A stretch of DNA of 53,300 bases from an uncultured Bacteroidales bacterium (lineage in GTDB: Bacteria > Bacteroidota > Bacteroidia > Bacteroidales > UBA932). The stretch is from the NCBI GenBank assembly GCA_947165305.1, contig CAMUZW010000002.1:1-53300 (forward strand), in the 5' to 3' direction. The notes beneath the pieces are model-generated. The model saw only the letters and a program-made list of their open reading frames with translations. It ran no database searches and was not told the origin of the DNA. Below are positions 3 through 13,693 of this stretch, in pieces. Position 1 is the first letter of the stretch; every line of letters begins with the position of its first letter. The position numbers and the translations under genes were made by a program.

Positions 3-1673
3 GTCGAGGGCATCGCCGAGATCAACGACGAGACCTCCCGCGAGGGCGTCCGCGTCGTCATCCGTCTCAAGATGGGCGCCAACTCCAATGTGGTCCTCAA
101 CAACCTCTTCAAGTTCTCTCCGCTCCAGTCGAGCTTCGCATTCAACAATGTTGCCCTCGTCAAGGGCCGTCCGCGCACGCTGAGCCTCAAGGAAATCATC
201 GCCAACTTCGTGGAATTCCGCCACGAGGTGGTGGTCCGCCGGACCCGCTTCGACCTCGCAAAGGCCCAGAAGCGCGCCCATCTGGTGGAAGGCCTCCTCA
301 AGGCGATGGATGTCATCGACGAGATCGTACACGTCATCCGTTACGAGTCCAAGACGACCGAAGATGCCAAGAACATCATTATGGAGCGCTTCGGCTTCAC
401 CGACCCCCAGGCGACGGCCATCGTGGAAATGCGTCTGCGGCAGCTCGTCGGACTCGAGCGCGAGAAGCTCCAGAACGAATATGACGAGCTGATGAAGTTC
501 ATCGGCCGGTGCAACGAGATCCTCGCGAGCGTCGAGCTCCAGCTTGCCGTCGTCAAGGACGAGACGCAGGAGCTGAAGGACAAATACGCCGACCCGCGCC
601 GTACCGAGATCAACCTCGCCGTGGGTGATTTCAACCCCGAGGACTTCTACGCCGACGAGGACCAGGTGATCACCATCTCGCACCTCGGATACATCAAGCG
701 CACCCCGCTGACGGAATTCCGCACGCAGAACCGCGGCGGTGTCGGCCTCAAGGGAAGCGCCACGCGCGACGAAGACTTTATCGAGCACATCTATATCGCC
801 AATACGCATTCGACGATGCTTCTGTTTACCCAGAAGGGCCGCTGCTACTGGCTTAAGGTGTACGAGATTCCGGAAGGGACGCGCACTTCGAAGGGACGCG
901 CCATCCAGAACCTCCTCTCCATCGAGGCCGACGACAAGGTCAAGGCATACATCAATGTCAAGAGCCTCAAGGACGAAGAATTCGTCAACAGCCACTATAT
1001 CATGATGGTCACCCGGAACGGTATCATCAAGAAGACCTGCCTGGAGGCGTATTCCCGTCCGCGCACCAACGGCGTCAACGCCATCATCATCCGCGAGGAC
1101 GACGAACTCCTCGAAGCGATCCTCACCAACGGCCGCTGCAACGTCATGATCGCGGCCAACGGCGGACGCTGTGTCCGCTTCGACGAGACCGACGCCCGGC
1201 CGCTCGGCAGGATGTCCTCCGGCGTGCGTGGCATCAATCTTGATGAAGGGGACTTCGTCATCGGTTTTGTCTGTCAGGATCCCGAGGCGGAGGATGCGGA
1301 GCGCAGGCAGGTGCTGGTCGTCAGCGAAAACGGTTTCGGCAAACGTTCCGATCCGGCTGAGTACCGCCAGACATCCAGGGGAGCCAAGGGCGTCAAGACG
1401 ATACAGATTACCGAGAAGACAGGATCGCTCGTGGCGATCAAGAACGTGACCGACGAAGACGACCTCATGATCATCTGCCGTTCGGGAATGACAATCAGGA
1501 TGCCGGTGAGCACCATCCGGGTGACGGGACGCGCCGCCCAGGGAGTGAAGCTCATCAATATCCGCGAAAAGGACTCCATTGCGGCTGTTTCCGTCGTCCA
1601 GCATACTTCCGATGAGGAAGAGGCTCCGGAAGAGACCGTCGCACCGGTACAGGAAGATAATATTAACAATTAA
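3..1673 (+). CDS. gyrA: DNA gyrase subunit A, C-terminal part (5' truncated by window edge)
   Basis: Frame is open from the window start (VEGIAEINDETSREGVRVVIRLKMGANSNVVLNNLFKFSPLQSSFAFNNVALVKGRP); GyrA breakage-reunion domain followed by C-terminal beta-pinwheel repeats. Confidence 0.95.
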   Translation, partial: VEGIAEINDETSREGVRVVIRLKMGANSNVVLNNLFKFSPLQSSFAFNNVALVKGRPRTLSLKEIIANFVEFRHEVVVRRTRFDLAKAQKRAHLVEGLLKAMDVIDEIVHVIRYESKTTEDAKNIIMERFGFTDPQATAIVEMRLRQLVGLEREKLQNEYDELMKFIGRCNEILASVELQLAVVKDETQELKDKYADPRRTEINLAVGDFNPEDFYADEDQVITISHLGYIKRTPLTEFRTQNRGGVGLKGSATRDEDFIEHIYIANTHSTMLLFTQKGRCYWLKVYEIPEGTRTSKGRAIQNLLSIEADDKVKAYINVKSLKDEEFVNSHYIMMVTRNGIIKKTCLEAYSRPRTNGVNAIIIREDDELLEAILTNGRCNVMIAANGGRCVRFDETDARPLGRMSSGVRGINLDEGDFVIGFVCQDPEAEDAERRQVLVVSENGFGKRSDPAEYRQTSRGAKGVKTIQITEKTGSLVAIKNVTDEDDLMIICRSGMTIRMPVSTIRVTGRAAQGVKLINIREKDSIAAVSVVQHTSDEEEAPEETVAPVQEDNINN

Positions 1674-1686
1674 TTGTTCTCAGATT

Positions 1687-3024
1687 ATGAAAAAGATTTT
1701 GACTTTTGCCGCAATCGTTGCACTGAGCGTGCAGTTTGCTTTTGCACAGTCCAAGCCCGAAGACCTCCGCAAGGGGATCGAGAAGGCTTCTGCCGCTACG
1801 CAGGATGCCAAGAAGGCGGCCAAAGTGGCGACCTGGACCAAACTGGGAGAAGCCTATCTCAAGGCTTATCAGCAGCCCACCGCCAACATCCCCAGCATGG
1901 GTGTGACCGCAACGGAACTCGCTCTCCTGATGAATGGTGAGAAACCCAAGAGCGTGGCTCCCGTGACGCTCCAGGGTGAGGCTTATGAGAAGCAGGTCTT
2001 CAAGGACAAGAATCTCTACTTCCAGAACGGACGTCTCGCCTTCGTCGAGATCACCAAACCCGTCCTGGGCAAAGAGGATGCCCTCGAAGGTGTCGTCAAA
2101 GCGTACACCAAGGCCGCCGAAGTGGATACCAAGGGTTCCAAGAAAAAAGAGATTGCCACGGTCATCGGAGACGTTGACAAATTCTATTTCAACGATGCCT
2201 ATACGGCTTTTGTCCTCGGCGACAAGATGAAGGCTTCCGAACTCTTCCTCAAGGCTGCCGAAGTCTCCGTCCTGCCGATGAGCCCGAAGATCGACACCTC
2301 CGCTTTCTTCAACGCGGGTCTCGCCGCCGCCGAAGCCGGCAACCTCGACCAGGCCAAGGCCTGCTACGAGAAGTCGCTCCGCTATGGCTACGACAAGATC
2401 TCCAAGGGATCCATCTATTCCTCCATCGCCAACATCTATATGGAGCAGAAGGACACCCTGGCCGCCAAGAAGTATCTGGAGGACGGTTTCGCCGTCTATC
2501 CCGACAACCCGCAGATCATGACCGACCTCATCAACCTTTACCTGTGGACCAAGGGCGATCCCAAGCAGATCATCACCCTGCTCGACAAGGCAAAGGCCCA
2601 GATGCCCGACAATGCCGGTCTCTATGATGTAGAAGGTGACATCTGGAAGAACCTCGGCAATCGCGAGAATGCGCTTGCGGCTTACAAGAAGTCTCTGGAA
2701 ATCAACCCGAAGGGTGATTATCCTTACTATGCACAGGGCCGCCTCTTCTGCGACTGGTACAACGAAATCGACAACGAGAAAGCCCAGGTGGATCTCCGTG
2801 ACTACAAGAAATACGACGAGCTCGACGCCAAGAGCAAAGAAGTGCTCCAGAAGAGCCTCGAACCGCTTGAGAAATGCTATGAGGTCACGGGCCGCAGCGA
2901 CATGAAGCTCGCCGCCGCCGACCTCCTCAAGAAGGTGTATTTCCAGCTTCGCTCCGTCAAGCCCGAGTACATGGAGTACCACAAGAAGTATGACGAGATC
3001 TGCAAGCAGCTCCAGAGCAAGTAA
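1687..3024 (+). CDS. secreted TPR-repeat protein
   Basis: MKKILTFAAIVALSVQFAFAQ signal peptide; TPR-like helices (AFFNAGLAAAEAGNLDQAKACYEKSLRYG, ENALAAYKKSLEINPKGDYPYYAQG); ORF-track start moved to the ATG at 1687. Confidence 0.8.
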   Translation: MKKILTFAAIVALSVQFAFAQSKPEDLRKGIEKASAATQDAKKAAKVATWTKLGEAYLKAYQQPTANIPSMGVTATELALLMNGEKPKSVAPVTLQGEAYEKQVFKDKNLYFQNGRLAFVEITKPVLGKEDALEGVVKAYTKAAEVDTKGSKKKEIATVIGDVDKFYFNDAYTAFVLGDKMKASELFLKAAEVSVLPMSPKIDTSAFFNAGLAAAEAGNLDQAKACYEKSLRYGYDKISKGSIYSSIANIYMEQKDTLAAKKYLEDGFAVYPDNPQIMTDLINLYLWTKGDPKQIITLLDKAKAQMPDNAGLYDVEGDIWKNLGNRENALAAYKKSLEINPKGDYPYYAQGRLFCDWYNEIDNEKAQVDLRDYKKYDELDAKSKEVLQKSLEPLEKCYEVTGRSDMKLAAADLLKKVYFQLRSVKPEYMEYHKKYDEICKQLQSK

Positions 3025-3982
3025 GATCCTGTCTTTGCTGGCGGCCGCGCTCGTCCTGGCACCGTCCCTCGCGGGACAGTCGAAGGATGCGGACAAAATC
3101 CGGGCGTCGGTCGCCAGGGCCTCCAAAGCGGTCCGTAATCCCGGCAAGGCCGCGAAGACCGCTTCCTGGCTTTCGCTGGCGGAGGCATACGAAGACGCCT
3201 ATTCATTTCCCCTCTCCAACCTCGTTCCCGGAGAGGGGAATTCTGTCCGTACCCTTTCGGTCCGCGGACAGCGCCCCCGGGAAATCATGGCGGCGACGCC
3301 CGTGAGCGGCATCTACAAGAACGTATATTCTGACAAGGACGTCTATTTCGATGCGGACGGGAAGCTCCTGGCCATCCGGGTCACCCGCCCCCTGCTCGAC
3401 ACGGTCGATGCGCTGGCGGGCGCATTGGAGGCTTATAAGAGGGCATATGCCTGCGATCAGAAAGGTTCTTACACGGACCGGATTGCCGACCACATCTCCC
3501 ACATCGCCACCGAGTACAGGACACTGGCCGAAGTGGCCGGGATGCTCGGGGAAAGCGGACAGTCCATGCAGTATTACCGGCTCTCCGCGGCCGCTTCGAT
3601 GATGCCGCCCTGTCAGCAGCCCGACATCCCGTCGCTCCGGATCGTCGCGGCCGAGGACGAACGGCTCATGCTCGAACGGGCGGAGCGCGAGCGGATAGCC
3701 CGCCTCAAGGCGTCCGCCCTGGATATCTATGAAAGGGGAGCGGAAGAGTACCGTGCGGCCATGGCGGTCCTCGACCGTGCGGCAGCCCTTCCGGCGGGGG
3801 AGGACAAGGTGTTTCAGCAACTCCAGACGGCCTTCAAGGAGCAGCTCCTGAAAGCTTCCGTGTCGCTGAAGCAGAGTTATATGCTGACGGATGACGCCGC
3901 CGTGCGAGAGAAAGCCGGTTCGCTGTTACGCGGGATCGCGCTGTTCTTCGGCGTCGAAAGCCTGGACGATCTTGGTGACTAG
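2990..3982 (+). CDS. secreted protein, diverged paralogue of the upstream TPR protein
   Basis: Hydrophobic N-terminus (ILSLLAAALVLAPSLAGQ); colinear similarity to the upstream protein; overlaps it by 35 nt. Confidence 0.7.
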   Translation: MTRSASSSRASKILSLLAAALVLAPSLAGQSKDADKIRASVARASKAVRNPGKAAKTASWLSLAEAYEDAYSFPLSNLVPGEGNSVRTLSVRGQRPREIMAATPVSGIYKNVYSDKDVYFDADGKLLAIRVTRPLLDTVDALAGALEAYKRAYACDQKGSYTDRIADHISHIATEYRTLAEVAGMLGESGQSMQYYRLSAAASMMPPCQQPDIPSLRIVAAEDERLMLERAERERIARLKASALDIYERGAEEYRAAMAVLDRAAALPAGEDKVFQQLQTAFKEQLLKASVSLKQSYMLTDDAAVREKAGSLLRGIALFFGVESLDDLGD

Positions 3983-6096: not shown

Positions 6097-6531
6097 ATGA
6101 AAATGTATTCTGTCATAGGGCTTGCCTGTGCACTCCTCCTTGCGGCCGGGTGCGACTTCCTGCGTTCGGTCGCCGGAAGGCCCACAACGGAAGAATTGCG
6201 TGCCCTCAGGGAGCAGTCCGCCGCGCCTGCCGTTCCGGAGGCTGCCGTGGCAGAGGAGGAAGAAGACCCGCTTCCGGATTTGCTGTCTTCCTCCGTATCC
6301 GAATCCGGCTATCTTGTCATCGTCGGTGCGTACCGGGAGCCCCGCCATGCGGCTAGGAGCGCCGAGCGCTATCGCCGCGACGGGTATGAGGTTTGCATGG
6401 TGGAGCGGGGCGCCGTCACCCTCGTCGGGCTCTGCCCGAGCAGTGACCGGGAGGAAGCGCGCCGTGCGCTTCTCCGCCTCAGGGCCAAAGGAGCCTGCCC
6501 GGAAGGCTCCTGGATTTTGAACGACCGCTGA
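6097..6531 (+). CDS. SPOR-domain-like lipoprotein
   Basis: Lipobox LLLAAGC; C-terminal GYLVIVGAYREPRHAARSAERYRRDGYEVCMV resembles SPOR. Confidence 0.65.
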   Translation: MKMYSVIGLACALLLAAGCDFLRSVAGRPTTEELRALREQSAAPAVPEAAVAEEEEDPLPDLLSSSVSESGYLVIVGAYREPRHAARSAERYRRDGYEVCMVERGAVTLVGLCPSSDREEARRALLRLRAKGACPEGSWILNDR

Positions 6532-6532
6532 T

Positions 6533-7897
6533 ATGAAACGACTGTTTGCATCGATATGCCTGCTCGGCCTCCTCCTGCCGGCCTGGGGCCAGATCCGTCC
6601 CGGGAGCGTTCTCGACGACCTTGACGACGGCGAGACCGTGGCAGCCCTCAAAGCGCACGTGCGCACCCTTTCCGCAGCCTCCCTGGAAGGGCGTAAAGCC
6701 GGTTCGGAAGGGGAGAAGGCCGCGGCGGACTACGTCGCCTCGGTGCTGAAGCGCTATGACATCGACGTCATTTCCCTCGAAGGGGGAGATCCCTTCGGCA
6801 TCCGCTCCGAGAACGGAGATACCCTTACTTCCCGCAATGTCGTCGCCTTCATTCCGGGCTACGACAAGTCGCTTTCGGACCATTTCATCGTAATCGGCGC
6901 CAGGCTCGACAACCTCGGCAGCGACCGCTACACCGTCGACGGAGCCAGCCGGGAAAGAATCTATTTCGGGGCTAACGGCAACGCATCGGGCATAGCCGCC
7001 CTGCTGGAAGCTGGACGGATGCTCCAGACCAACCGCATTCTCCTGCGCCGTTCGGTCCTCCTGGTCGGCTTCGGCGCTTCCCGAGAGAGTTTCGCCGGCA
7101 GCTGGTACTTCCTGCACCGGGCCTTCAAGGATGTCGGAAACATCGACGCGATGGTCAATCTGGATATGTTGGGAACGGGTTATTCCGGCTTCTACGCCTA
7201 TACGTCATCGAATGCGGACCTCAATGCGATGCTCGGGACGGTTGCGGGCGACCTCAACCCCGTCGTCCCGACGCTGACGGCGGCGGAGCCTTATCCTTCT
7301 GACCATAAAGTCTTCTACGACAAGCAGATTCCGTCCGTCCTCTTCACGACCGGACGCTATCCGGAGCACGATACCGAGAAAGATACCCAGTCCGTCGTCG
7401 ACTACGCCTCGCTCGAGAAAGAGGTAGAATACATCTATAATTTCACCAAATATCTGATCAATGCGCCCGCGCCTTCATTCTTCCCGTCTGCGGACGGCAA
7501 GAAACAGAAATATGCGCCCGACGTGATGTCGTACTACGAATGCGACCACCGCCCCACCTTCCTCAACACGGCCGATCCTTCGGTCTTCCTGCAGAAGTGG
7601 GTGTATCAGTATCTCAAATATCCCCGTCAGGCGGTTGAGAACGGGATTCAGGGTCGTGTGATGGTCGATTTCGTCATTGATGCGACGGGGGCTGTGCGGG
7701 ACGTGAAGGTCTCCCGGGGCGTCGATCCGCTCCTCGACGACGAGGCGGTGCGGGTCATTTCCGCTTCCCCGAAGTGGAAGCCCGGCCGTCATCTCGGCAA
7801 GAAGGTGAGCGTGGCGCTCTCGCTTCCGGTCGAGTTCCGCCTCGAAAAGAAGGGCAGTTTCGGCCTGAACGGCCATAAATTCGGCAAAAAGAAATAA
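6533..7897 (+). CDS. M28-family peptidase-like (probably inactive) domain fused to a TonB C-terminal domain, secreted
   Basis: [20 protein letters not shown] signal; M28 fold motifs [39 protein letters not shown]-terminal [56 protein letters not shown] typical of TonB_C. Confidence 0.85.
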
Positions 7898-7904
7898 CAG
7901 TTAT

Positions 7905-10661
7905 ATGGATTACGAGTTTCAGAAAATCGAGAAGAAGTGGCAGGACAAGTGGGCCGCCGACAAGACGTTCAAGGTCGGTGTGGATCCCTCCAGACCCAAG
8001 TATTATGTGTTGGACATGTTCCCTTATCCTTCGGGCGCGGGATTGCACGTAGGGCATCCGCTGGGCTACATCGCCAGCGATATTTTCTCCCGCTACAAAC
8101 GGCTCAAGGGCTTTAACGTCCTTCATCCGATGGGCTATGACGCCTTCGGCCTCCCGGCCGAGCAATATGCCATCCAGACGGGTCAGCATCCCGAAATCAC
8201 CACCCACAAGAATGTCGCCCGCTACCGCGCCCAGATGGACCGGATCGGCTTCTCGTATGACTGGGACCGCGAATTCCGCACGTCCGACCCGTCGTATTTC
8301 AAGTGGACCCAGTGGGCGTTCCTCAAGATGTTCGGCAGCTGGTATGACAAGAAGCTGGACAAAGCGCGTCCTGTCGAAGAGCTTGTAAAAGCCTTTGCGG
8401 AAGGCGGATCTGCTGCCGTGGATGCCGCTTCGTCTGATGCGCCGGTCTTTACGGCCGCCGAGTGGAACGCTTTCTCCGACAAGGAGAAATCCGACATTCT
8501 GATGCATTACCGCCTGGCTTACCAGGGCGAGACCTTCGTCAACTGGTGTCCGCAGCTTGGTACCGTCCTGGCCAACGACGAAGTCAAGGAGGGGTATTCC
8601 GTCCGCGGGGGATTCCCGGTGGAGCAGAAGAAGATGACGCAGTGGCAGCTGCGGGTTTCGGCTTATGCCGGCCGCCTGCTGGAAGCGCTTGACCGGCTCG
8701 ACTGGTCTGATTCGCTCAAGGAGATGCAGCGCAACTGGATCGGCCGCAGCGAGGGCGCAGAGATGGTCTTCAAGGTGCGGAACGGCTCCGCCGAATACGA
8801 CATGACCATCTTCACCACCCGGGCCGACACCGTCTTCGGCGTGACCTTCATGGTCCTGGCTCCGGAGAGCGAATGGGTCGAAAAACTCACGGCACCGGAG
8901 CAGAAAGAAGCCGTTGAGGCCTATCTGGCCGAGGTCAAGAAGAAGACCGAGCGCGAACGGATCGCCGGCAAGACGGTATCCGGCGTCTTTACCGGTTCCT
9001 ATGGCATCAACCCCCTGACCGGGAAAGAAGTCCCCGTCTGGATTTCTGAATATGTACTGGCCGGATACGGTACCGGCGCCATCATGGCCGTTCCTGCCCA
9101 CGACAGCCGCGACTATGCATTCGCCCGGAAGTTCGGCCTTCCGGTCATTCCGCTCATCGAGGGTGCCGACGTGCGCGAAGAGAGTTTCGATGCGAAGGAA
9201 GGCATCATGATGAATTCCGGCTTCCTGAACGGTCTCACGGTCAAGGAGGCCATTCCTGCTGCCATCGAGTACATCGAGGCGCACGGCATCGGCCGCCGGA
9301 AGGTCAATTACAAGATCCGTGACGCGATCTTCTCCCGCCAGCGCTATTGGGGAGAACCGTTCCCTATTTATTATAAGGACGGCATCCCGACGCCGCTCCC
9401 GGAGGAAGCCCTGCCCCTGACGCTGCCCGAGGTCGACGAATTCCGGCCGACGGAGGCCGGGGATCCGCCGCTCGCGCGTGCCAAGGACTGGACCTATGAT
9501 GGTTATCCGCTCGAGACCAGCACCATGCCCGGCTTCGCGGGCTCCAGCGCCTACTATCTGCGCTATATGGATCCCCGGAACGACGGTGCGCTCGTCTCAC
9601 CGGAAGCGGATGCATACTGGCGCAACGTGGACCTCTATATCGGCGGCACGGAGCACGCGACGGGCCATTTGATCTACTCCCGCTTCTGGAACAAGGTGCT
9701 CTTCGACCTCGGCTATGTCTGCGAGGACGAGCCCTTCCTGAAGCTGGTCAACCAGGGCATGATCCAGGGACGCTCCAATTTCGTGTACCGGATCGTCGGG
9801 ACCAACACCTTCGTCTCGCTCGGGCTCAAGGACCAGTATAAGACGACCGAAATCCATGTGGATATCTCCCTGGTGCACAATGACCGGCTCGACACCGAAG
9901 CCTTCAAGGCCTGGCGGCCGGACTTCGCGGATGCGGAATTCATCCTCGAAAACGGGGAATACATCTGCGGGTGGGCTATCGAAAAGATGTCCAAGTCGAT
10001 GTTCAACGTCGTCAATCCGGACACCGTCTGCGATACGTACGGCGCCGATACGCTCCGCCTCTACGAGATGTTCCTCGGTCCGCTCGAGCAGAGCAAGCCC
10101 TGGAATACCAAGGGCATCGACGGCGTCAACCGCTTCCTCAAGAAGTTCTGGCGGCTGTTTTGGGACCGCGACCGCTTCCTCGTGAATGATGAGGAACCGA
10201 CCCGGGCGGAGCTCAAGGCTCTTCACACCTTGATCGCCAAGGAGCAGGAAGATATCGAGAATTTCTCGTTCAATACGACGGTCAGCGCGTTCATGATTGC
10301 GCTGTCTGAGCTCGGAGAATGCTCCAAGAGGGCCATCCTCGAACCGCTTACGATCCTGCTGTCGCCCTTCGCCCCGCACATCGCGGAGGAACTCTGGGAG
10401 CAGCTCGGGCATACGGGGAGCGTGGCTTTCGCCGCCTATCCTGCCTATAACGCCGCTTATACCGTTGAGGAGACCTGCACCTATCCGGTCTCGTTCAACG
10501 GGAAGACCCGCTTTATGGCTGACCTGCCGAAGAGCCTGTCGAAGGAAGAAGTGGAGGCCGCGGTCCGCGCCATGGACCAGACGGCAAAATACGTCGGGGA
10601 CGGCACCATCGTCAAGGTGATCGTCGTACCCGGAAGGATTGTCAACATCGTCGTGAAATGA
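7905..10661 (+). CDS. leuS: leucyl-tRNA synthetase
   Basis: [18 protein letters not shown] (HIGH-type), KMSKS motif ([14 protein letters not shown]), CP1 editing domain. Confidence 0.96.
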
Positions 10662-11590
10662 TCAACGCCAAGAAAATAGGAGGCATTGTCTGGGATTATT
10701 TCCTGATGACGGTCGGATGTCTGATCTTTGTAATGGGGTGGACGTCCTTCCTCCTGCCGAATGAGGTGACCAGCGGCGGCCTGACAGGCCTCTGCGCCGT
10801 CCTGCAGTATGCGACCAACGACAAACTGCAGGTGGCGTACACCTTCCCGGCCATCAACGCCGTACTCATCATTACGGCCACGTTCGTGCTCGGGAAGAGT
10901 TTCGGCTTCCGGACCATCTATGCCATCGCCGTTTCGTCGCTGATGTTCGAAATCATGCCCCGTTTCGAGTTCCTCCAGGCGGTGCCCGGCAATTTCCTGT
11001 ATCTGGACGAGAAGATCCTCGTTCCGGTCATCGGCTCCGTGATGGAAGGCATCGGTATCGGACTTATCCTGATGCGTGGCGGAAGCACGGGCGGTACCGA
11101 CATCGCCGCAATGATTATCGGGCGGTTCTGGCCGATTACGCCCGGCACGGTGTACATCATCCACGACCTTGCCGTCATCGGGTCGCTGCTGCTGATTCCG
11201 GGCAAAACCTTCCAGGATGTCGTGTACGGCTACATCTCTATGCTGACCTTCTCGTTTATGCTTGACTACGTGATCCTCGGTCAGAAATCCACCGTACAGC
11301 TGCTGATCTTTTCGTCCAAGTATCCCGCTATCGCCGACTATATCAATAACAAGATGGAACGCGGCGCCACGGTGCTCAAGGCGACGGGCTGGTACACCAA
11401 GGTCGACCGCGATGTCCTGCTTGTCATCGTCCGCAAGAGCGAAGTCCACGAAATTACCAAAGTCATTAAACAACTCGATCCCAAGGCTTTCCTTTCCATT
11501 TCTCCCGCCAACAGCGTGTATGGCGAGGGATTCGAAGAAATCAAGGCGGGCTTAGAACGCAAGAAGAAAAATGCCGAAGCACAAAATTAG
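10658..11590 (+). CDS. YitT family membrane protein (DUF161/DUF2179)
   Basis: Multi-[33 protein letters not shown]-terminal DUF2179-like [29 protein letters not shown]. Confidence 0.88.
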
Positions 11591-12527
11591 TTTCTGGAAA
11601 CTGATCAAGGAGTACGGGATCATGATGCTCGGACTCCTGTTCTCCACGACCGGATGGACCGCGGTCCGGATGCCGAACAACCTTATTTCAGGAGGCGTGA
11701 CCGGTATCAGCTCCATCATTCAGTATGCGACGGGCGGGTTCATCAAGGCCGGTTACTGCTACTTCGTGATCAACGCCATCCTGCTGGTCGTCGGGTTCTG
11801 GGTCATCGGGACCGGGTTCGGCGGCAAGACCATTTTTGCCGTAGCCTTCGTTTCGGTTGCGCTGGTCTTCCTCCCGGAATGGATTCCGTACGAGATCATC
11901 GAGACGCTGGCCATCAAGAACGGCAAGCTCATGTCGGTCCTGATGGGGGCGATCATGTCGGGCGTCGGTATCGGCATGTCGATCTCACAGGGCGGCAGTA
12001 CGGGCGGTACGGACATTATCGCCCTGGTCTATACGAAGTACCGCAACGTGTCGCCCGGCAAGGTCATCCTGGCGATCGACGTCGTGATCATCCTGTCGTC
12101 CCTCTTCATCCCTTCGTATGTCAAGGTGGGGGACGGCATGGAACTGATGCCTTTTGCCGACAAGGTGACGACCGTCGTGTACGGCCTGATCCTCGTGACG
12201 GTCTGCGGCTATGTCATTGACCTCTATATTTCCGGTTCCAAACAGAGCGTGCAGCTTTTCATTCTCTCCAAGAAGCATGAAGAGATTGCCGACGGTATCG
12301 TCAAGGATCTGCACCGCGGCGTGACCGTCCTGGAAGGGAAGGGCTGGTATACCAAGCAGTCCACCGAAGTGCTGATGGTCGTGACCCGTAAGTCGGATCT
12401 GAACCTGATGCTCCGCTATATCCAGTCCATCGATTCGGAGGCGTTCCTCTCCGTCTCGTCCGTAAACGGCGTCTATGGGAAGGGATTCGATACGATCAAA
12501 TTAAAAAAACACGCAAAAAGTGAATGA
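11571..12527 (+). CDS. YitT family membrane protein, tandem paralogue
   Basis: [63 protein letters not shown]; overlaps upstream gene by 20 nt. Confidence 0.88.
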   Translation: MPKHKISFWKLIKEYGIMMLGLLFSTTGWTAVRMPNNLISGGVTGISSIIQYATGGFIKAGYCYFVINAILLVVGFWVIGTGFGGKTIFAVAFVSVALVFLPEWIPYEIIETLAIKNGKLMSVLMGAIMSGVGIGMSISQGGSTGGTDIIALVYTKYRNVSPGKVILAIDVVIILSSLFIPSYVKVGDGMELMPFADKVTTVVYGLILVTVCGYVIDLYISGSKQSVQLFILSKKHEEIADGIVKDLHRGVTVLEGKGWYTKQSTEVLMVVTRKSDLNLMLRYIQSIDSEAFLSVSSVNGVYGKGFDTIKLKKHAKSE

Positions 12528-12646: not shown

Positions 12647-13693
12647 ATGATCGTATTGACTGTTTTGATGATCCTGGGATTATGGATTGGAGTTTCCGTT
12701 TTTCGTGATTGGAAAAAGCTACGGGAGTACCCTCAGATGCTTTTCCGGCTCTGCTCGCTGGTGCTGCTTGCCGCTTTGCTCGTTGAGTCCCTGTTGCTTT
12801 ATGGCGATGATGCGCTGACCGCATTCCCCGACGGGCTTACCCTCTCCCTGATGCTCTTGCTGTCGGCACCGCTGACGTGTGAAACGCCGGCAAAAGGAAC
12901 TGTCCGCATCCTTGTTTCATCCGCGCTGGCTGTGGTGGCACTGCTGCTCCCGTTACTGATGCATGGCAGATGTGAGACCCTGCATTTACTTGTACTGCTC
13001 GTCGCTGCGTCCTATCTGCTGACCGTTTCTGTCATCACGCTGGTCCGCTGGATGCACAGCCAGGATGTCATGCGGCCCGTCGCGCCCGTCTCCCTTGCCG
13101 AGATCCGGATCCGGAATTCAGAAGTCCTGCTGCTGCTTGTGATTGCAGGCGGGACGGCATTGATTTCTTCCTGTGACGGGCATTCCTCCCTTCTGTGGCT
13201 GCCCGGCATACTGGGAGCCCTTTTCTTCTGCATCCTTTACCTCTGGTCGGGTAGCGATTCCGCCCTTTCTCCCATTGGCTGGATGCGGCATCTGGCCGCC
13301 GTCCCGTCCGATGGCAAGGCGCCCCGGAATCCGCTCGATGCCGAGTTCTATGATGCCGTTTACCGGAAGTGCTGCCAGTACATGGAGTCCAAGAAGCCCT
13401 TTCTGGTGGAATCGTTCTCGCTCAGCGACCTCGCGGCCGGGGTCTTTACCAATAAAAGTTATGTATCAAAGGCTATCAACAGCTCGTCTGAACTCAATTT
13501 CCGCCGGTTCGTCAACCGCTACCGCGTAGCGTATGCACAGGAGATATTCCGTAAAAATATGTCCTTGCGCGTGCAGGACCTGACCATGCTGTCGGGCTGT
13601 CATTCCGTCCAGACGTTCTGCGCGATCTTCAAGCTTTTTACCGGAGAGACGCCCCGGGACTGGTGCGCGCGGATCAGGAAAGAGACTCCATAG
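12647..13693 (+). CDS. membrane-embedded AraC-family transcriptional regulator
   Basis: Several predicted N-terminal TM segments; C-terminal AraC HTH (FSLSDLAAGVFTNKSYVSKAINSSSELNFRRFVNRYRVAYAQEIF...TFCAIFKLFTGETPRDWC). Confidence 0.8.
   Translation: MIVLTVLMILGLWIGVSVFRDWKKLREYPQMLFRLCSLVLLAALLVESLLLYGDDALTAFPDGLTLSLMLLLSAPLTCETPAKGTVRILVSSALAVVALLLPLLMHGRCETLHLLVLLVAASYLLTVSVITLVRWMHSQDVMRPVAPVSLAEIRIRNSEVLLLLVIAGGTALISSCDGHSSLLWLPGILGALFFCILYLWSGSDSALSPIGWMRHLAAVPSDGKAPRNPLDAEFYDAVYRKCCQYMESKKPFLVESFSLSDLAAGVFTNKSYVSKAINSSSELNFRRFVNRYRVAYAQEIFRKNMSLRVQDLTMLSGCHSVQTFCAIFKLFTGETPRDWCARIRKETP

What the first reader, a model, noticed from the sequence alone, without database searches (positions are those of the whole stretch)
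6533..7897. M28 peptidase-like domain with missing zinc and catalytic residues, fused to a TonB C-terminal domain
Compared with the M28 family pattern (GAHxDHxG ... GADDNASG ... GEExGLxGS ... D ... H), this protein reads GARLDNLG (ligand His to Arg124), GANGNASG (bridging Asp-Asp to Asn148-Gly149) and [10 protein letters not shown] (Glu-Glu to Ser183-Arg184). The fold-defining glycines and the later Asp/His survive, and the ORF is intact. It continues into a clear TonB C-terminal domain ([48 protein letters not shown]). It has a cleavable-looking signal peptide and no obvious proline-rich linker, unlike canonical TonB. This suggests a secreted pseudoenzyme repurposed as a binding or scaffold module coupled to the envelope. 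It starts 1 nt after the stop of a SPOR-like lipoprotein gene.
Basis: partly seen in the sequence, partly recalled or inferred. Interest (0 to 1): 0.62.

Follow-up and report, generated by a model that had tools for sequence, protein, structure and literature searches.

The report
Dead peptidase fused to TonB domain
A secreted gut-bacterial protein joins a peptidase-shaped domain, which has lost almost its whole zinc site, to a TonB-type binding domain; enzyme-looking relatives still exist, and the same kind of loss has happened several times in one bacterial family, which gives a natural experiment in how enzymes become non-enzymes.

Summary
The ORF at 6533-7897 is an M28 domain (Pfam E 2.7e-20; AlphaFold pLDDT 92; closest folds are Streptomyces and Vibrio aminopeptidases) plus a TonB_C domain (E 6.4e-19). 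Four of the five metal ligands and the catalytic Glu are gone: His>R124, bridging Asp>G149, catalytic Glu>S183, Glu>R184, His>D280. Only D211 remains. R124 and G149 are fixed in all 107 genus orthologues, and S183 in 106. The fusion was found only in one Bacteroidales family (16 of 26 genera), not in about 780 other genomes sampled in the order and phylum. Within that family some members keep all six active-site residues, while others lost different subsets: at least 7 changes on the tree, and an AU test rejects one degenerate clade (p 9e-7). TonB_C is intact in 85 of 85. Upstream lies a SPOR protein gene, overlapping or nearly abutting it across the genus. The genome has a separate membrane-anchored TonB, so this protein is probably not an energy transducer. 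Best reading: a periplasmic pseudopeptidase adaptor under purifying selection. Its binding partner is unknown.

The parts
6097..6531 (+). SPOR-domain lipoprotein gene (144 aa, lipobox LAAGC), immediately upstream partner
   Evidence: Pfam PF05036 E 1.3e-5; 77 of 80 genus loci have it upstream on the same strand; gap mostly -8 to +13 nt in the genus, gcvT in between in most other genera
6533..7897 (+). Pseudo-M28 / TonB_C fusion protein, 454 aa
6533..6589 (+). Signal peptide, residues 1-19, predicted cut before Q20
   Evidence: hydrophobic segment at residues 3-14; A/G/S at position 19 and Q20 invariant 107/107; cleavage inferred, not tested
6836..7438 (+). M28-like domain (residues 102-302)
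   Evidence: PF04389; Foldseek best hits 1tkf, 2anp, 1amp, E 3.5e-16 to 1.9e-15
6902..6904 (+). R124 in place of metal-ligand His (H97 in Vibrio aminopeptidase)
6977..6979 (+). G149 in place of bridging Asp (D117)
7079..7084 (+). S183-R184 in place of catalytic Glu (E151) and ligand Glu (E152)
   Evidence: S183 fixed 106/107, position 184 free to vary
7163..7165 (+). D211, the only metal ligand kept (D179)
   Evidence: 106/107 in genus
7370..7372 (+). D280 in place of ligand His (H256); N, G, D, A or Q in the genus, never His
7610..7843 (+). TonB_C domain (residues 360-437)
   Evidence: PF03544 E 6.4e-19; 85/85 members match; W356, Y360, Y363, P364, G374, F380, G386, S412, P413, W415, F435, L437 invariant
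7905..10661 (+). leuS, conserved downstream neighbour (context only)
   Evidence: 80/80 genus loci and most family loci

Best explanation
SHOWN by sequence: a secreted M28-fold domain that has lost four of five metal ligands and the general base, joined to an intact TonB_C domain, retained across a genus and, as a fusion, across much of one Bacteroidales family in which canonical active-site members also exist. INFERRED: it is catalytically dead and works as a periplasmic adaptor. The former aminopeptidase cleft binds a peptide or protein end without cutting it; R124, possibly paired with D211, would occupy the emptied metal site. The TonB_C domain docks on an envelope partner (peptidoglycan or the periplasmic face of an outer-membrane transporter). 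It acts together with the SPOR lipoprotein encoded just upstream, probably on the same transcript. It is not a TonB energy transducer. Confidence: pseudoenzyme about 0.93; adaptor with TonB_C as the constant working part about 0.5; any particular partner below 0.2.
For: Ligand states RGSxDx in nearly all genus orthologues (exceptions: one RGAEDN, one RGSLEN). R124/G149/S183 are fixed while 184 and 280 vary, so the site has settled on new residues rather than simply decaying. In the genus the former pocket is more conserved (0.84) than the rest of the domain (0.69); 5 of 207 circular shifts do as well. Purifying selection: median omega 0.26 for the M28 domain and 0.21 for TonB_C, and the M28/TonB_C ratio is like that of canonical-site lineages (0.060/0.050), so no extra relaxation of the dead domain. 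TonB_C core invariant in 85/85 while ligands are not. Several losses: 7 changes by parsimony, 13 if losses cannot be reversed, one degenerate clade rejected, AU p 8.7e-7. Fold confident, pLDDT 92. Separate anchored TonB in the genome. SPOR gene overlapping or nearly abutting in most genus loci.
Against: No biochemical data; no binding partner identified. In one g57 member with R124 position 211 is Asn, so the pairing is not universal. A few near-complete, small genus genomes lack a full-length copy (G256, G322, G369), so it is not indispensable. dS is near saturation (median about 1.1), so omega values are rough. SPOR linkage could be passive: in most other genera gcvT, a metabolic gene, lies between, and in some there is no SPOR hit nearby.
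Confidence: 0.5

Rival explanations
1. It is still an enzyme: a one-metal or metal-free hydrolase or transferase using the remodelled site (for example S183 as nucleophile, D211 and a partner residue).
For: S183 and R124 are almost perfectly fixed in the genus and the pocket is conserved. The M28-like CA_C2195 binds one zinc with part of the canonical set missing (PMC4000134).
Against: Only one of five ligands is left and two positions (184, 280) drift freely in the genus. CA_C2195 still has Asp-His-His around its zinc (PMC4000134) and this protein does not. Glutaminyl cyclases, the known M28 enzymes with changed chemistry, keep all five ligands (PMC4000134). Other degenerate lineages fixed different residues at the same positions, which does not suggest one new chemistry.
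Confidence: 0.08
2. It is an energy-transducing TonB with an unusual globular spacer: the N-terminus is an uncleaved anchor and the M28 domain is just a linker between membrane and TonB_C.
For: TonB_C is canonical and fully conserved; the N-terminus has a hydrophobic segment.
Against: The hydrophobic stretch is short and ends in an invariant A/G/S-Q junction typical of signal peptidase I; there is no proline-rich periplasm-spanning linker; a TM-anchored TonB with a PPPPP stretch exists in the same genome; the three other TonB_C proteins in the genome likewise start with a signal-peptide-like or lipoprotein-like sequence rather than a TonB-type anchor.
Confidence: 0.08
3. It is a gene in decay: catalysis was lost because the function is no longer needed, and the ORF is on its way out.
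For: Omega in the genus is higher than in canonical-site lineages (0.26 against 0.06); some small genomes lack it.
Against: Intact ORF in essentially all genus orthologues, new residues fixed at former ligand positions, and omega raised equally in its TonB_C domain. The same outcome (loss with retention of the fusion) recurs in several lineages.
Confidence: 0.04
4. It is a regulator of a living peptidase or amidase: the dead domain pairs with, or competes with, an active hydrolase (as degenerate LytM factors do for amidases), brought to peptidoglycan by SPOR and TonB_C. This is a special case that overlaps the adaptor reading.
For: SPOR neighbour; some members keep a full site, so the fold and partners could be shared; the genus has a second, standalone degenerate M28 protein.
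Against: No active partner identified; the second M28 paralogue is itself degenerate; the LytM analogy is from general knowledge, not tested.
Confidence: 0.25

Closest known systems
MEROPS/Pfam M28 aminopeptidases (Streptomyces griseus aminopeptidase, Vibrio proteolyticus aminopeptidase)
   Same: Fold and motif frame; Foldseek E 3.5e-16 to 1.9e-15, 20-21% identity
   Different: Four of five metal ligands and the catalytic Glu are replaced; a TonB_C domain is added
Non-peptidase M28 homologues (transferrin receptors 1 and 2; the DUF4910 protein CA_C2195; PMC4000134)
   Same: M28 fold with an altered active site; the receptors use it for protein-protein interaction
   Different: Those described there are eukaryotic receptors or a clostridial protein; none is described with TonB_C. 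Here canonical-site and degenerate members coexist in one bacterial family
TonB C-terminal domain proteins (TonB, HasB)
   Same: TonB_C by Pfam (PF03544) and by sequence match to solved TonB domains 5lw8, 6sly, 6fip
   Different: No inner-membrane anchor, no proline-rich linker, globular M28 domain instead
Other TonB_C proteins without a TonB-type anchor in the same genome (320, 317 and 156 aa open frames)
   Same: Signal sequence (one a likely lipoprotein) plus C-terminal TonB_C
   Different: Different or no N-terminal domain; function also unknown

Membership tests
Peptidase family M28 (active enzyme) | Fold / profile match | tested here: met
   PF04389 E 2.7e-20; Foldseek to 1tkf and 1amp
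Peptidase family M28 (active enzyme) | Five co-catalytic metal ligands (His, Asp, Glu, Asp, His) | tested here: not met
   R, G, R, D, D at 124, 149, 184, 211, 280
Peptidase family M28 (active enzyme) | Catalytic general-base Glu | tested here: not met
   S183, 106/107 Ser in genus
Peptidase family M28 (active enzyme) | Metal-dependent aminopeptidase activity | not testable with these tools
   needs purified protein
TonB energy transducer | C-terminal TonB_C domain | tested here: met
   PF03544 E 6.4e-19, TIGR01352 E 1.2e-11
TonB energy transducer | Uncleaved N-terminal inner-membrane anchor that contacts ExbB-ExbD | tested here: inconclusive
   signal-peptidase-I-like junction with invariant Q20 argues against; cleavage not measured
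TonB energy transducer | Proline-rich periplasm-spanning linker | tested here: not met
   residues 308-350 are not proline-rich (6 Pro in 43, no run)
Non-peptidase M28 homologue (pseudoenzyme) | M28 fold with conserved loss of catalytic residues and continued purifying selection | tested here: met
Glutaminyl cyclase (M28 fold, changed chemistry) | All metal ligands and active-site Asp/Glu kept (PMC4000134) | tested here: not met

The most novel reading that the evidence does not exclude
One Bacteroidales family carries a TonB_C-tethered M28 protein that has repeatedly switched from enzyme to non-enzyme, each time keeping the TonB_C part and in several lineages putting Arg where a zinc-binding His was, so that catalysis is optional and binding is the selected function.
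Probability: 0.55. Interest if true: 0.65.

Novelty: new variant of a known kind. Interest (0 to 1): 0.5.

Why it matters
Pseudoenzymes are usually known as finished products. Here full-site members, members that lack only the general base (HDQEDH, HDNEDH), and members with one to four ligands gone all sit in one gene family at a largely conserved place next to leuS. That makes the order and the repeatability of active-site loss directly testable. It also draws attention to TonB_C domains on proteins without a TonB-type anchor, whose function is not established.

Tried and rejected
Surviving ligand His at H279: rejected by alignment. Loss as a sequencing or assembly slip: rejected by 107 orthologues. 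One single ancestral loss in the family: rejected. Fusion as a widespread Bacteroidota architecture: not found in about 387 other genomes of the order nor, beyond the window's own genome, in a phylum sample of 396 that overlaps it slightly; there the three other matches past 1e-70 are 319-332 aa M28-only ORFs. SPOR neighbour as an invariant partner: weakened, since in most other genera gcvT lies between and some loci show no SPOR hit. R124-D211 pairing as a strict rule: not strict. Literature searches for an M28-TonB fusion or M28 pseudoenzyme with TonB found nothing. The second structure job was not used, and coordinates of the model were not available.

Full report
WHAT IS THERE. The ORF at 6533-7897 (+) encodes 454 residues without interruption. 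hmmscan finds Peptidase_M28 (102-302, E 2.7e-20) and TonB_C (360-437, E 6.4e-19); NCBIfam agrees on TonB_C. An alignment-based AlphaFold model has mean pLDDT 92, and its best PDB matches are the Streptomyces and Vibrio zinc aminopeptidases. The N-terminus is a short hydrophobic stretch ending in a junction where residue 19 is A/G/S and Q20 is invariant in 107 orthologues; I infer a cleaved signal peptide. There is no other hydrophobic segment and no proline-rich linker.

THE ACTIVE SITE. Mapping to Vibrio aminopeptidase (ligands H97, D117, E152, D179, H256; base E151, from general knowledge of the family) uses the sequence alignments and the family alignment. The window protein reads R124, G149, S183 (base), R184, D211, D280. 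Four of five ligands and the base are gone. The non-variation of R124, N148, G149, N150 (107/107 each) and S183 (106/107) against free variation at 184 and 280 says that part of the old site has been rebuilt and part released.

DISTRIBUTION. Contig names among the orthologues include Candidatus Cryptobacteroides, a Bacteroidales genus; I infer the window is from that genus or one close to it. In the window's family, 16 of 26 sampled genera hold a full-length fusion. None of about 387 genomes from 119 other families of the order does; their best matches are M28-only or TonB_C-only. A phylum sample of 396 genomes, partly the same ones, adds none beyond the window's own genome. These are samples, with at most four candidates scored per genome. 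A few near-complete small genomes of the genus lack the full-length gene (G256, G322, G369).

EVOLUTION. Writing positions 124-149-183-184-211-280 as a string, canonical is HDEEDH. Nine of ten g52, nine of fourteen g45, the g54 and g59 members and one g57 member are canonical, as are the nearest M28-only relatives; the window genus is RGSxDx apart from single-position exceptions (one RGAEDN, one RGSLEN); others read NAKENY, NDKExx, HAGEDR, RAGEDR, HDSEDN and so on. On a tree built without these columns the canonical/non-canonical label changes at least 7 times; counting losses only, 13. A tree with all degenerate members in one clade is rejected (AU p 8.7e-7); the tree is a quick one and some rows are long. 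In some members only the base is lost (HDQEDH, HDNEDH), a plausible first step. Throughout, TonB_C is intact: 85 of 85 members match Pfam and a dozen of its residues are invariant.

SELECTION. Pairwise NG86 omega in the genus: M28 median 0.26, TonB_C 0.21; in canonical-site g52+g45: 0.060 and 0.050. Both domains are under purifying selection, and the dead domain is not relaxed relative to its own TonB_C. dS is about 1.1, so absolute values are rough. In the genus, residues around the former active site are more conserved than the rest of the domain (0.84 against 0.69; 5 of 207 circular shifts match that).

CONTEXT. Downstream is leuS in 80/80 genus loci and nearly all family loci with enough flank; in g63 it lies on the other strand and the one g57 locus L124 lacks it. 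Upstream is a SPOR protein gene: in the genus the two genes overlap or lie within a few bases in most loci (81 of 107 upstream proteins show a lipobox by a simple pattern), and gcvT is absent there in 110/110; in the other genera gcvT sits between SPOR and the fusion, or at least upstream of the fusion, except g56 where neither was found. The genome has only two M28-domain proteins plus an M20-type hit; the second M28 protein (C15) is also degenerate (HSKLDN) and its genus orthologues are too. It has a separate TonB with a TM segment and PPPPP, and three more TonB_C proteins without a TonB-type anchor.

HOW IT MOST LIKELY WORKS. Shown: fold, ligand loss, retention, intact TonB_C, gene order. 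Inferred: no catalysis; the old cleft still binds something; TonB_C docks on an envelope partner; the SPOR lipoprotein, made with it, places the pair at peptidoglycan. R124 may fill the metal site against D211, but one R124 member has Asn at 211, and I could not measure distances in the model.

AGAINST WHAT IS KNOWN. Non-peptidase M28 homologues are an established kind: the transferrin receptors, and the DUF4910 protein CA_C2195 with one zinc (PMC4000134). TonB_C domains are well known in TonB and HasB. I found no description of this fusion in the held literature, which does not cover most subscription journals. So: a new variant of a known kind, with an unusually complete evolutionary series.

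Noticed in passing
L196 / L207 (own genome contig C15, about 12669-13604, minus strand): A second, standalone signal-peptide M28 protein in the same genome is also degenerate (HSKLDN; Lys or Asn usually replaces the catalytic Glu), and 13 genus orthologues are degenerate too.
   Followed up: partly
L198, L201, L202 (own genome contigs C51, C5, C23): Three further TonB_C proteins without a TonB-type anchor, one a likely lipoprotein; their role is unclear.
   Followed up: no
window 6531-6533 versus L126 3724-4830: gcvT lies between the SPOR gene and the fusion in most other genera but is absent there in all 110 genus loci checked, bringing the two genes together.
   Followed up: partly
window 10658-12527: Two adjacent, overlapping membrane-protein paralogues (YitT-like by my reading) follow leuS; the pair is common in genus loci.
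   Followed up: no
window 1579-3982: Two overlapping genes that look related to each other (TPR-like by my reading; both hit the same neighbouring ORF in relatives).
   Followed up: no
L137 (G118, g59): A canonical-site family member with a 325-aa open frame that lacks TonB_C; truncation, frameshift or true loss not resolved.
   Followed up: no
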